Shown here in pieces: positions 1-12,422 of a stretch of DNA of 64,000 bases (within the stretch, counting starts at the first letter, position 1; every line of letters begins with the position of its first letter). This DNA is from an uncultured Rickettsiales bacterium. Lineage in GTDB: Bacteria > Pseudomonadota > Alphaproteobacteria > Rickettsiales > Rickettsiaceae. The notes under the pieces were generated by a model that was not told where the DNA came from, searched no databases, and saw nothing but the letters and a program-made list of their open reading frames with translations. The DNA is taken from NCBI GenBank assembly GCA_903952265.1, contig CAJBEU010000002.1:1-64000 (forward strand), given 5' to 3'. A program made the position numbers and the translations under genes.

Positions 1-117
1 CTGCTGCTGCTGGAGCCTCTCCTGTTGAAGCTCCCCATGCTGCTGCTGCTGGAGCCTCTCCTGTTGAAGCTCCCCATGCTGCTGCTGCTGGAGCCTCTCC
101 TGTTGAAGCTCCCCACG
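1..117. repeat. 39-bp tandem repeat, three copies visible
   Basis: Copies lie at 1-39, 40-78 and 79-117. The first two are identical and the third differs at one base (position 116), which is synonymous (Ala GCA to GCG) in the minus-strand frame. The unit is 13 codons long, so copy-number change keeps the frame. About 24 of 39 bases are G or C, far above the surroundings. The array is cut by the window edge and its true copy number is unknown. Confidence 0.95.
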
Positions 118-169
118 CTGCTGCCGCTTGTGTTTCTGTTCCTTCCACTATTTTTACTTTGTTTGGCAT
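1..169 (-). CDS. Alanine-rich tandem-repeat protein, N-terminal part (runs off left edge)
   Basis: An open frame on the minus strand starts at ATG 169 and stays open to the window edge, so only the first 56 codons are visible. It begins MPNKVKIVEGTETQ and then enters a 13-residue repeat, WGASTGEAPAAAA, present three times with no sign of ending. An in-frame TAA lies a few codons upstream of the ATG, so this is the earliest ATG start. No signal peptide is visible. The Ala/Gly/Pro-rich composition and high GC contrast with the AT-rich neighbours. I do not recognise the family. Low-complexity arrays like this occur in surface, secreted and linker regions, but function cannot be assigned. The other two minus-strand frames would give Gln- or Ser-rich repeats. 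This frame is preferred because it has a plausible start. Confidence 0.6.
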   Translation of the reverse strand, partial: MPNKVKIVEGTETQAAAAWGASTGEAPAAAAWGASTGEAPAAAAWGASTGEAPAAA

Positions 170-529
170 ACGTGTATCTGTCTTTTATGATTAAGTTAAA
201 AGTTCACTAGATCACTTATATCAGATTTTCTTAAAGTACTACAAGGAAAAAATTTCAAATAACGCCTATTTTTCTGGATATATGGGCCTCGATGAGTGAG
301 GCTAATGTTAGCTTTAGGTCTTAAGCCATAGTTTTTACAAGAAAAGCATATAAAATTTTGTCGCTAAATCAGATTGAGCAAATTTCTTTCTGTTTGCTTA
401 TTTTGTCTGTCGTGGTGTGATTTTATTGATTCAGTTATATGTGCTTATAGCTTGGGTTTTGTTGGAGTGTTTTTCAATAATATGTTTGCAAGAAACGCAA
501 CATGTAAGGCTCTCTTGGGCAGTGCATGT
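170..529. other. Intergenic region between murG and the repeat gene
   Basis: No convincing gene is seen in these 360 bases. A short plus-strand frame (374-577, TTG start) reads into the 3' end of murG and looks like a chance ORF. A small inverted repeat, GCCTC-7-GAGGC, lies at 286-302. It has no following T run on either strand, so it is not a clear terminator. A candidate promoter for the left-edge gene is listed separately. Confidence 0.5.
215..244 (-). promoter_or_regulatory. Candidate sigma-70-type promoter for the repeat gene
   Basis: Read on the minus strand, TTGTAG (239-244) is followed after 18 bases by TATAAG (215-220). The ATG is at 169, which would give a leader of about 40 bases. 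The -35 match is partial and AT-rich DNA yields such matches by chance. Confidence 0.3.
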
Positions 530-1621
530 TCACTCTTGAGCTCTAGCCTTCAAAGTTTTCATAACTTCTTCAGTTAAGGTGCTTCTTGGTTTATTTGCTA
601 AAACTCTCAGCTGTTCTGCGGCATCTTGTAACATTTTTGGATATTGTAATATAAGAGAGAGTTTATTTGCTAAATTTGTATCGCATTGCTCATTCTGAAT
701 AATCAACCACGCACATCCCAGTTTTTCTAAATAGGTCGCATTTATGGCTTGGTGGTTTTTTGCTGCAATTGGAAGAGGAATAAGTATAGAAGGTTTGTGA
801 ACGGACACTAGTTCTTCTATTGTAGAGGCTCCAGATCGGCATATCACAAGGTCTGCTTTGCTGTATCTTTCTGACATATCGAAAAAGAATTGTTTCAACT
901 CACATGGTACTTCTATTTCATTATAGAAATTCTTTAGATACTCTTGCCCATCCTCATGAGCCTGCTGAGTGAGTATTATTTGTTGGTTTGGGTGCATTTG
1001 CTTTAGTAGTTTAATTGCATTTGGAATGATTGTGTTAAAAACTCTTGCTCCCTGACTTCCCCCTATTACCAAAATTGAAAGAGTTTTTGAATCTAGCGTG
1101 TTTTGAGTCTTTTGATGCTTTATTTGATTTCGTATCGGATTTTTGCTGAAAACACATTTATGAGAGTATTTTTTTGGAGGTACAAGAGCCTCAAAAAACC
1201 CTAGCGATATTTTGCAAGCATATCTTGCCATGCTTTCGTTTACTTTGCCCAATACGCTATTTTGTTCGTGTAAAATTATCGGTATTCGAAGGACTACTGC
1301 TGCAGCTAGAGGAATAAAAGTGGTAAAACCTCCAAATCCAACTATTAATTTTGGCTTTAATTTAATATAGATGCATGAGAGCCTTATTAGAGTGCTTAGC
1401 ATGTTCCAGATTAAAATGACCATATTAATTAGGCCATCTTTTGGCAGCATTCTTGGTATCATTATTGTTTTCAATCCTTTTGCTTCAATAGGATCGTCTA
1501 TATCGCTTATAATAAAGCAGACTTTGTCTTGCTCATTTTGCAGATTTTGCGCAATGGAGATCGCGGGGAATAAATGTCCCTTCGTGCCTCCGCCCACCAG
1601 CACTACTACTTCTTTTCTCAT
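530..1621 (-). CDS. murG: UDP-N-acetylglucosamine--undecaprenyl-PP-MurNAc-pentapeptide GlcNAc transferase MurG
   Basis: MurG adds GlcNAc to lipid I to make lipid II on the cytoplasmic face of the inner membrane, the last intracellular step of peptidoglycan synthesis. The 363-residue length is normal for the family. Visible motifs are the N-terminal glycine-rich loop (residues 10-16), a VIGGSQGA loop opening the C-terminal Rossmann domain, and CRSGASTIEEL in the donor-binding region. The glycine-rich loop reads GGGTKGH where the family normally has GGTGGH, so Lys14 replaces a glycine. The gene lies 27 bases downstream of ftsW on the same strand, the usual alphaproteobacterial order, but murC does not follow. 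The ATG start at 1621 has no strong ribosome binding site. Confidence 0.95.
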   Translation of the reverse strand: MRKEVVVLVGGGTKGHLFPAISIAQNLQNEQDKVCFIISDIDDPIEAKGLKTIMIPRMLPKDGLINMVILIWNMLSTLIRLSCIYIKLKPKLIVGFGGFTTFIPLAAAVVLRIPIILHEQNSVLGKVNESMARYACKISLGFFEALVPPKKYSHKCVFSKNPIRNQIKHQKTQNTLDSKTLSILVIGGSQGARVFNTIIPNAIKLLKQMHPNQQIILTQQAHEDGQEYLKNFYNEIEVPCELKQFFFDMSERYSKADLVICRSGASTIEELVSVHKPSILIPLPIAAKNHQAINATYLEKLGCAWLIIQNEQCDTNLANKLSLILQYPKMLQDAAEQLRVLANKPRSTLTEEVMKTLKARAQE

Positions 1622-7878: not shown

Positions 7879-8739
7879 GTGAACAGAAGTATCTATATTT
7901 GGTCCTTTCTCGGCATTTTGGCTTTTCTAGCAATTAACAACAGTTTTGTGATAGTGGATGAGCGTCAAACGGCTGTAATATTCCAGTTTGGAAAGGTTGT
8001 AAAGCAGATAGAGAATCCAGGCTTATACATAAAGGTTCCCCTGATTCAATCAGTAAAATGTTACGAAAAAAGGCTTATCTGGATGCCCATTGCAGCTAAA
8101 GAGCTTACTGCTGCAGACAGTAAAAGGGTGATAATAGATGCATCGGCTTACTTGAAAATAGTAAATCCTACAATGTTTTATAAGTCGGTTTTTTCCTATG
8201 AAGATGCACAAATCAGGGTTTGCTCTCGTCTTGAGTCTTCTATTAGAAAGGTTATAGGAAGACACTCTTTGGCAAACTTACTTTCTTCTGCCCGTAGCAG
8301 CATAATGCAAGAAATATCACAACTGCTTGATGCAGAAGTCGCAGATTTTGGCCTAAAAGTTATCGACGTGCGTATTTCAAGGGCTGATCTGCCCCAAGAA
8401 AATAGTTCTGCTATCTGCAAGAGAATGCAAACTGCAAGAGAGCAAGAGGCAAGAGGAATAAGAGCTGAAGGGAATGCGGAGGCGGCCCGCATTATTTCTG
8501 AAGCCGACAAGACTAAAAAAATTCTCTTGGCTGAAGCGTATGCCAAAAGCGAATTAATTAAAGGTCAAGGAGAGGCAAAAGCATCAGAGATATATAACAA
8601 AAGTTATTCTCAAGACGAGGAGTTCTTCAATTTTTACAGATCCATGCAGACTTATGCAAAGGTCTTTGCTCCTGGTAATTCTCAGTTTATTGTTTCTCCA
8701 AATAGCAATTTTATGAAATCTTTGAAACTAGGAGAGTGA
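7879..8739 (+). CDS. hflC: FtsH protease regulator subunit HflC
   Basis: Band-7 partner of HflK, 286 residues, with an N-terminal membrane segment (about residues 5-22) and the typical start of the domain, VIVDERQTAVIFQFGKVV. The later region has the HflC-like REQEARGIRAEGNAEAARII stretch. The start is GTG 7879 with AGGT just upstream. It follows hflK and precedes degP by seven bases, so the three are probably co-transcribed as a membrane protein quality-control unit. Confidence 0.94.
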   Translation: MNRSIYIWSFLGILAFLAINNSFVIVDERQTAVIFQFGKVVKQIENPGLYIKVPLIQSVKCYEKRLIWMPIAAKELTAADSKRVIIDASAYLKIVNPTMFYKSVFSYEDAQIRVCSRLESSIRKVIGRHSLANLLSSARSSIMQEISQLLDAEVADFGLKVIDVRISRADLPQENSSAICKRMQTAREQEARGIRAEGNAEAARIISEADKTKKILLAEAYAKSELIKGQGEAKASEIYNKSYSQDEEFFNFYRSMQTYAKVFAPGNSQFIVSPNSNFMKSLKLGE

Positions 8740-10364: not shown

Positions 10365-12422
10365 TTATACGGTGCCAAGATGTTCAAGTGGGTATTTGCT
10401 GTGTAGTTCTTTGTGCCCTAAAACTGTTACCATGGGTTGGATTTTTGCAATAAGATTTCTTACATAAGGGCGAATTCCGCTACTTACTAGTATGGAGGGC
10501 ATAATTCCATCTATTACGTTGTCGTTTAAAGATTGCTGCACTTTTGTAAGAAAAGCATTTAGCTCAGACGGAGGTAAAATTATTTGTTTTTCTTCTTCCA
10601 AATCGTACATATTTTCTAGTAGTTTATTTTCCCAGGAGTCAGATATTGCAATGATTGGTAGTTTACCTTTTGCGTTGACGTTTTGAGCGCATATCTGCCT
10701 TGCAAGTTTGCCACGAACAAACTCTGTGATTAAAACCACATTTTGTCCTTTTGAGGACGCATCTCCAGCACTTTCTAATATTGTTGGTAGATCTTTGATA
10801 GATATCCCTTCTGCAAGCAATTTATGTAAAACTTTTTGCAATCTACTTATGTTAATAATATCTGGAATTAGGTCTTGTATAAGCTTTTTATGAGTTTTAC
10901 TAGTCTCTTCTACTAGATTTTGCACGTCTGTGTAAGATAAAAGATCGGTTATATTTTCCTTTATTATTTGAGTTAGGTGAGTGGTAATGACTGAAGAGCT
11001 GTCTAAAACTGTATAACCCTCTGCCATATTTAAATCAGAGGCGTCAATCCATTTTGCCGGTAAGCCAAAGGCTGGTTCTTTGCAATTTATTCCTTCAATT
11101 TGTATATCTTTTCCTGTTGGGCTCATCACCATATATTTTTCTGGAAAAATTGTTCCATATCCTGCAGTTATTTCTTTGATTTTTATCAAGTAATCATTTC
11201 GATTTATTGCAGCGTTATCCTGAAGTCTTATTGCAGGAAGAATAAAACCTAGTTTTGCAGCAGTTTGTTTGCGCAGTAGTTTAAATTTTTTCGGCAAACT
11301 ATTGTTCATGTAAGGAGAGGCTAGCGAGAGTAGCCCCATTCCAAGTTCTACTTTAATTGTGTCTAGCTTTAATACTTCTGCGACGTTTTCTTCTGCAGGG
11401 TGAATAGGAGTGAATTTTTGAGCTGTAGTGGCAATTTTTTCTTTTGCAACCCGAGATACGAGATAAGCCAATCCTCCAAGAGCTCCAGATATAAGAAAGA
11501 ATGGGAAAAATGGTAATCCAGGCAGTAATGCTATAGCGATACTTAAAGAGGCGGCCAAAAATAAAGCTCTAGGTCGTTTGCTTAATTGAGCAAAAAGCGC
11601 TTTATCAGAGGATCCAGAGTTACTAGCTTTTGTGACAAGAAGACCTGCAGATAGAGATATTATTACCGAAGGAATTTGACAAGTTAGACCATCACCTATC
11701 GTCAAAATACTATAGGTTCTAACTGCAACATCTAGAGGTAGATTTCTCTGTAGTATGCCGATAATTATGCCTCCAATTATGTTGATAAAAGTTATTATTA
11801 CTCCTGCAATTGCATCTCCTCGGACAAATTTGTTAGCACCATCCATGGAGCCGTAAAAGGTTGTTTCTTCTTCGAGGCTTTTTCTTCGGTCTTTAGCTGT
11901 CTGATTGTCAATCACTCCTGAAGAAAGTTCCGCATCTATCGCCATTTGTTTTCCAGGCATGGCATCTAAACTAAATCTTGCTGCCACTTCTGCGATTCTG
12001 CTTGATCCTTTGGTAATTACTATAAAATTGACGATCGTCAAAATCAAAAAAATGATAGCTCCAATTACTACGTTGCCTTGCATTACAAAATGTCCAAAAG
12101 CCGAAATTACATGTCCTGCGGCTTTATCTCCAAGGTGCCCATTTGCCAAAATAAGTTTTGTGGACGCAACGTTTAAGGATAGTCTGATGATTGTGGTAAT
12201 TAATAACAAACTAGGAAATACGCTTAAGTCTAAAGGTGTAGGAATCAATAAAGTAGTGACCAATATCACCAAAGACGTAGATATAGAAAAAGCTAGCATT
12301 ATATCTAGCAAAAATGCAGGTATTGGAAGCAGTAAAAATAGTAAGACTGTAACTATACCAAGGGCTAGTGCTATGTCGTTGTGTTTGGCTACTTTTTTAG
12401 TAAATTCTAGTACTGCGGACAT
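10365..12422 (-). CDS. flhA: Flagellar biosynthesis protein FlhA
   Basis: Core component of the flagellar type III export gate. It has the usual N-terminal half of about eight membrane segments, with the conserved FHIPEP-family stretch including MPGKQMAIDAELSSGVID (about 153-170), and a large cytoplasmic C-terminal domain that docks chaperone-substrate complexes. At 685 residues it is full length with no interruption. It could in principle be a virulence-type SctV, but the length and the presence of flhB elsewhere in the window favour the flagellar version. It starts 15 bases after alaS ends and is probably read with it. No other flagellar gene is adjacent. Confidence 0.92.
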   Translation of the reverse strand: MSAVLEFTKKVAKHNDIALALGIVTVLLFLLLPIPAFLLDIMLAFSISTSLVILVTTLLIPTPLDLSVFPSLLLITTIIRLSLNVASTKLILANGHLGDKAAGHVISAFGHFVMQGNVVIGAIIFLILTIVNFIVITKGSSRIAEVAARFSLDAMPGKQMAIDAELSSGVIDNQTAKDRRKSLEEETTFYGSMDGANKFVRGDAIAGVIITFINIIGGIIIGILQRNLPLDVAVRTYSILTIGDGLTCQIPSVIISLSAGLLVTKASNSGSSDKALFAQLSKRPRALFLAASLSIAIALLPGLPFFPFFLISGALGGLAYLVSRVAKEKIATTAQKFTPIHPAEENVAEVLKLDTIKVELGMGLLSLASPYMNNSLPKKFKLLRKQTAAKLGFILPAIRLQDNAAINRNDYLIKIKEITAGYGTIFPEKYMVMSPTGKDIQIEGINCKEPAFGLPAKWIDASDLNMAEGYTVLDSSSVITTHLTQIIKENITDLLSYTDVQNLVEETSKTHKKLIQDLIPDIINISRLQKVLHKLLAEGISIKDLPTILESAGDASSKGQNVVLITEFVRGKLARQICAQNVNAKGKLPIIAISDSWENKLLENMYDLEEEKQIILPPSELNAFLTKVQQSLNDNVIDGIMPSILVSSGIRPYVRNLIAKIQPMVTVLGHKELHSKYPLEHLGTV

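What the first reader, a model, noticed from the sequence alone, without database searches (positions are those of the whole stretch)
1..169. 39-bp repeat array encoding an Ala-rich 13-residue repeat at a gene's 5' end
The minus-strand frame starts MPNKVKIVEGTETQ and runs into WGASTGEAPAAAA repeats. The unit is a multiple of three, copies are almost identical and the only difference is synonymous, which suggests recent expansion under coding constraint. Its GC content is much higher than the surroundings. Such arrays can vary in copy number between strains and may be exposed at the surface or host interface (inference).
Basis: partly seen in the sequence, partly recalled or inferred. Interest (0 to 1): 0.6.

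Follow-up and report, generated by a model that had tools for sequence, protein, structure and literature searches.

The report
Orphan repeat gene in rickettsial genome
The repeats are the start of one real, long protein of a rickettsia-like bacterium with a very small genome; the window merely ends where the assembly broke inside the repeats, and the protein matches no family searched, so it is an ordinary kind of repeat protein with an untested role, perhaps exported to a host.

Summary
Window 1-127 (minus strand) is a 39-bp in-frame repeat that starts 14 codons after an ATG at 169. The window's left edge is the end of an assembly contig. The array and the same reading frame go on at the start of the genome's other contig and stay open for 779 codons. 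The two contig ends overlap exactly by 58 bp, in frame, and in the sister species the genes of both ends lie on one contig around one large gene. The product has at least 816 residues, with at least 8 repeats of 13-15 residues near its N-terminus and three 30-residue repeats near its C-terminus. The high G+C comes from the residues, not from foreign DNA. No family or credible relative was found; the sister's gene at this locus shows no significant similarity. The N-terminus has no hydrophobic stretch. The genome has type I secretion genes, but the type IV and VI markers searched are missing, so an Ehrlichia-TRP-like exported protein is one of two about equally likely readings; the composition test for a type I signal did not single it out. 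Copy-number variation could not be tested.

The parts
1..127 (-). 39-bp in-frame repeat (WGASTGEAPAAAA), 3 WGASTG units; continues on contig C1:1-264 of the same genome with 6 units spaced 39, 42 or 45 bp
128..169 (-). 14-codon N-terminus MPNKVKIVEGTETQ of the repeat gene, ATG at 169; the gene goes on off the window to a stop at C1:2340
185..187 (-). in-frame TAA upstream of the ATG, which bounds the N-terminus
170..529 (.). intergenic stretch between murG and the repeat gene; the consensus scan listed no promoter- or terminator-like site on the gene's strand
530..1621 (-). murG (Pfam PF04101, PF03033), upstream neighbour on the same strand; also the neighbour in the sister species (58% identity)

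Best explanation
Shown: one gene, read leftwards from window 169 and broken only by the assembly, codes for an orphan protein of at least 816 residues. It has a 14-residue N-terminus, at least 8 Ala-rich repeats of 13-15 residues, and about 690 further residues with three 30-residue repeats. It lies in a 0.57-Mb genome of the same GTDB family as 'Ca. Sneabacter' (Rickettsiaceae), at a place (murG / hybrid histidine kinase) where the sister species has another large Ala-rich gene with no significant similarity to it. Inferred: the array grew by in-frame unit duplication (slippage or unequal recombination), tolerated because the unit is a linker-like segment. Inferred, weaker: the protein, which has no evident Sec signal, leaves the cell in one step through the genome's type I system (PrtD/HlyD/TolC) and acts at the interface with a host, in the manner of Ehrlichia tandem-repeat proteins; the repeats serve as a length-variable spacer or display.
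For: Array and frame continue on contig C1. Exact 58-bp in-frame overlap of the contig ends. The other ends of the two contigs overlap by 93 bp inside a transporter family, so the circle can close. The sister species G001 has penicillin-binding protein (my naming), kinase, [759-aa gene], murG, ftsW/rodA and M23 peptidase on one contig. After the array, codon usage is like that of controls (0.189 against 0.183 +/- 0.040 for 43 non-overlapping ORFs of 200 aa or more) in frame 0 only. The slot holds dissimilar large genes while the neighbours keep 44-75% identity. Type I ABC (PrtD model; tested in G000 only) and HlyD are over NCBIfam cut-offs and TolC over Pfam's; HlyD and TolC are in 3 of 3 genomes. 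VirB10 is absent from G000, G001 and Sneabacter but present in the 5 other family members that I put in the same search; VirB4 is in 0 of 3, with no relative as positive control; VipB is in Sneabacter only, 1 of 3.
Against: The last 50 residues have 0.60 LDAVTSIF letters, which 14 of 49 window ORFs reach, and KHPMWC letters are not depleted (0.22; 38 of 49 have that or less), so there is no sign of a type I signal. The type I genes lie far off (C1:55-58 kb; TolC on C2) and are not linked to this gene. The flagellar export gate FlhA is also present and could be an exporter. FoldIndex is positive for the array itself (0.23, 0.21) and for all but two of the 13 later 50-residue blocks, so neither the repeats nor the rest is shown to be disordered, and the protein may be a folded cytosolic one. 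Homology with the sister's gene is not shown (p about 0.06, low-complexity).
Confidence: 0.4

Rival explanations
1. The same gene, but the protein is cytosolic or envelope-associated (scaffold, polymer-binding or division-related, given its neighbours murG, ftsW/rodA and a penicillin-binding protein), and the Ala-rich repeats are a neutral linker that expanded by slippage.
For: No hydrophobic N-terminus; cell-wall neighbours; no type I signal composition; FoldIndex mostly weakly positive.
Against: Sneabacter keeps ftsW/rodA and murG but has flhA right after murG, with no such gene there. No credible relative in 57 other genomes, which is unusual for a core envelope part.
Confidence: 0.4
2. Assembly artefact: two unrelated genes were each cut at a repeat and only look continuous, or the array is chimeric.
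For: Both contigs end inside the array, where short reads mis-assemble.
Against: The sister species carries the genes of exactly these two ends on one contig; in-frame exact overlap of 58 bp; the other two ends overlap by 93 bp.
Confidence: 0.04
3. Foreign gene (phage, plasmid or horizontally gained), as the high GC might suggest.
For: Array GC 0.63; no credible relatives among 57 other genomes of the family and order.
Against: GC3 of the array is 0.17-0.19, below that of controls (0.30): the GC is residue-driven. No match in phages, plasmids, viral contigs or PHROGs. A large gene sits in the same slot in the sister species.
Confidence: 0.08

Closest known systems
Ehrlichia tandem repeat proteins (TRP120 and others), type I secreted effectors
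   Same: Rickettsiales; large protein without evident Sec signal; small N-terminus, near-identical in-frame repeats, C-terminal part; type I ABC, HlyD and TolC in the genome (TRP120 layout from passages of PMC10028187)
   Different: Repeat is Ala-rich (6 of 13), 13-15 residues, one acidic residue; TRP120 repeats are 80 residues. C-terminal part is about 690 residues, not 142. Type I signal composition is not distinctive. Sequence likeness to TRPs was not tested directly
Anaplasma marginale MSP1a
   Same: N-terminal tandem repeats continuous with a C-terminal region (passages of PMC3679145)
   Different: MSP1a is a surface protein with Ser-rich repeats of 23-31 residues, strain variation in number, and repeats predicted disordered; none of surface location, variation or disorder is shown here
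Coding minisatellites (in-frame VNTRs) in general
   Same: Unit a multiple of three, near-identical copies, in-frame length variants
   Different: Variable number not shown; only one genome of the species is at hand

Membership tests
In-frame coding minisatellite | unit a multiple of three within an open reading frame, near-identical copies | tested here: met
   spacings of 39, 42 and 45 bp, 97% match in the window, open frame of 779 codons on C1
In-frame coding minisatellite (VNTR) | copy number differs between strains | not testable with these tools
   no reads or second strain; the sister species has no such array
Ehrlichia-type T1SS tandem repeat protein | type I secretion machinery in the genome | tested here: met
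   PrtD model 664 bits (cut-off 510), HlyD 323 bits (cut-off 209), TolC domain 86 bits (cut-off 22)
Ehrlichia-type T1SS tandem repeat protein | C-terminal type I signal (enrichment in LDAVTSIF letters; criterion recalled, from no call) | tested here: inconclusive
   0.60 in the last 50 residues; 14 of 49 window ORFs reach it
Ehrlichia-type T1SS tandem repeat protein | intrinsically disordered repeats | tested here: inconclusive
   FoldIndex of the array is positive (0.23, 0.21), i.e. not disordered by that crude measure
Ehrlichia-type T1SS tandem repeat protein | secretion shown by experiment | not testable with these tools
   none
Surface protein by the Sec route | N-terminal signal peptide or hydrophobic anchor | tested here: not met
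   simple hydropathy only, no signal-peptide predictor: best 19-residue mean of the 56-residue window fragment is 0.52, inside the repeats
Any Pfam, NCBIfam, PHROGs or PADLOC family | match over the curated cut-off or a credible E-value | tested here: not met
   best Pfam 14.3 bits (cut-off 34), best NCBIfam 8.8 bits (cut-off 300); 0 families in PHROGs and PADLOC at E up to 0.1 for this protein

The most novel reading that the evidence does not exclude
A genus of very small Rickettsiaceae that has lost the otherwise near-universal rvh type IV system, without a type VI system in its place, delivers fast-evolving repeat-rich proteins through type I secretion, and keeps one fixed chromosomal slot (between murG and a hybrid kinase) where such effectors are replaced or rewritten beyond recognition between sister species.
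Probability: 0.15. Interest if true: 0.5.

Novelty: new member of a known kind. Interest (0 to 1): 0.25.

Why it matters
It shows that a repeat at a window edge can hide a whole gene that the assembly cut in two. If the export reading holds, the locus would be a lead to how a rickettsial lineage without the usual type IV or VI markers deals with its host. As it stands it is one more lineage-specific repeat protein of unknown role.

Tried and rejected
Homologues: phages and plasmids by tblastn (no match at E up to 0.01), genome contigs (26 stretches, 0 confirmed), viral contigs by protein (9 stretches, 0 confirmed) and by one exact DNA pattern (0). Those tools may leave out records very near the window's own genome. 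Relatives: 3 of 58 genomes matched at E up to 0.01, one being its own; the other two are weak hits (E 0.003 and 0.008, 27%). In one search I first tested the wrong (longest) reading frame of those two loci. In one search the frame at the hit in L009 reads as an HflC-like protein (my naming, by likeness to window 7879-8739), so I take it as chance likeness; the frame at the hit in L010 was not read (that part of the script failed).

PDB: one hit at E 0.25, ignored. The sister's gene gave a major-capsid hit (E 9e-4, 18.5 bits, cut-off 75), a tape-measure hit (2e-4) and a JetC hit (2e-4), all covering its Ala/Lys/Glu-rich helix region; rejected as composition hits. AlphaFold of the sister's gene, single sequence: mean pLDDT 43, pTM 0.30; the better-scoring parts are long helices near residues 3-60, 343-409 and 418-476; too poor for a fold search, so none was run. 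Horizontal gain because of GC: rejected by GC3.

Papers: PMC11909080, PMC10028187, PMC11077975, PMC3679145, PMC10847448 and PMC9352585 were seen as passages found by terms; all others only in search listings. A first guess that the genome is a Holosporales member was dropped.

Full report
Observation. The array is as described: window 1-128, period 39, 3.3 copies, 97% matches; self-match at lag 39 is 0.978 against at most 0.461 in 2000 shuffles. On the minus strand an ATG at 169 follows an in-frame TAA at 185-187 and reads MPNKVKIVEGTETQ, then Ala-rich WGASTGEAP repeats.

Where the window ends. The window is G000:C2:1-64000, so its left edge is the end of a contig of a 571,808-base genome in 2 contigs. 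A search of that genome with window 1-400 finds, besides itself, two overlapping matches at C1:9-223, within an array that TRF puts at C1:1-264. There the same reading frame runs open for 779 codons to a stop at C1:2340. The ends overlap exactly by 58 bp, at a frame-keeping offset of 111 bases; 19 bp is the other exact overlap, and 97 bp would need one mismatch. The other two contig ends overlap by 93 bp within a tandem family of transporters. The sister species G001 is the same sequence as CANGTI010000001.1 (Rickettsiales bacterium RE-15aug16-152) over the stretch held. There one contig carries the genes of both ends: the C1 penicillin-binding protein (my naming; 68% identity) and hybrid kinase (53%), a 759-aa gene, then the C2 genes murG (58%), ftsW/rodA (68%), M23 peptidase (44%) and three more (63-75%). 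The break is therefore an assembly break inside one gene.

The protein. With the 58-bp overlap the product has at least 816 residues and at least 8 WGASTG units (3 in the window, 6 on C1, one shared); the true number may be larger, since units can be lost in assembly. Unit spacing on C1 is 39, 42, 39, 45 and 42 bp, always in frame. Three copies of a 30-residue unit (SDGAARS...) lie at residues 596, 626 and 657 of the C1 frame. After the array, codon usage in frame 0 equals that of 43 control ORFs (0.189 against 0.183 +/- 0.040), and the other five frames are at or below 0.06; for the array alone the contrast is poorer (0.596 against 0.427 in one antisense frame). The array's GC at codon positions 1, 2 and 3 is 0.79-0.80, 0.92-0.93 and 0.17-0.19, against 0.45, 0.35 and 0.30 in controls, so its high GC is a matter of residues, not of origin.

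Relatives. No family in Pfam, NCBIfam, PHROGs or PADLOC, nothing credible in the PDB, no match in phages, plasmids, GTDB contigs or viral contigs. Of 58 genomes, its own and two others matched; the two hits are weak, and the one that was read is an HflC-like protein. The sister's gene matches only itself in the same 58 genomes, and a direct alignment of the two is not significant (score 83; 300 window shuffles mean 65.8, sd 10.3, maximum 112, p about 0.06, in low-complexity sequence). So the two genes share place, strand and rough size, and both have Ala-rich stretches, but homology is not shown. 'Ca. Sneabacter namystus' (G018; Rickettsiaceae), of the same GTDB family as G000, has flhA right after murG and no such gene there.

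Mechanism. The N-terminus has no hydrophobic stretch (simple hydropathy only). Of exporters tested: VirB4 0 of 3, without a relative as positive control; VirB10 absent from G000, G001 and Sneabacter and present in the other 5 of 8 genomes searched, all of the same family; VipB in 1 of 3, Sneabacter, which agrees with passages of PMC11077975 and PMC10847448 that it lacks rvh and has a type VI system. Type I ABC and HlyD genes lie side by side at C1:55-58 kb and a TolC gene lies on C2; all are over cut-off. A passage of PMC11077975 calls a T1SS conserved in all Rickettsiales. FlhA is over cut-off too, so flagellar-type export is not excluded. The layout recalls Ehrlichia TRPs (PMC10028187), but the composition test for a type I signal does not separate this protein from others: 14 of 49 window ORFs reach its value. 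FoldIndex does not call the repeats disordered. Export is therefore only one of two readings of about equal odds, the other being a cytosolic or envelope role.

Verdict. The array is real and coding, the gene is whole apart from the assembly gap, and it is a new orphan member of a familiar kind: an in-frame repeat protein of a probably host-associated bacterium. Copy-number variation and location stay untested. Whether the gene is described in print was not searched by name; the listings did not point to it.

Noticed in passing
G000:C1:230000-238745 (L025) and C2:327000-333063 (L007): A tandem run of about 9 related MFS-type transporter genes (37-59% identity to one of them; best NCBIfam model TIGR00883, below its cut-off, for the two tested) spans the other contig junction of this 0.57-Mb genome.
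   Followed up: partly
window 10365-12422; L031:1898-3507; G000:C2:141773 and 256379: Flagellar FlhA, MotA/MotB-like and PF06429 (rod/hook-type) genes are kept in this genome, and PF06429 genes in the sister species, but no flagellin N-terminal domain was found in any of the 3 genomes searched.
   Followed up: partly
G000 and G001 (whole genomes): VirB4 and VirB10 markers of a type IV system and the VipB marker of type VI gave no match in either species of this genus.
   Followed up: partly
L019:4409-4713: In the sister species a 164-bp unit is repeated 1.9 times (89% matches) between the kinase gene and the 759-aa gene.
   Followed up: no
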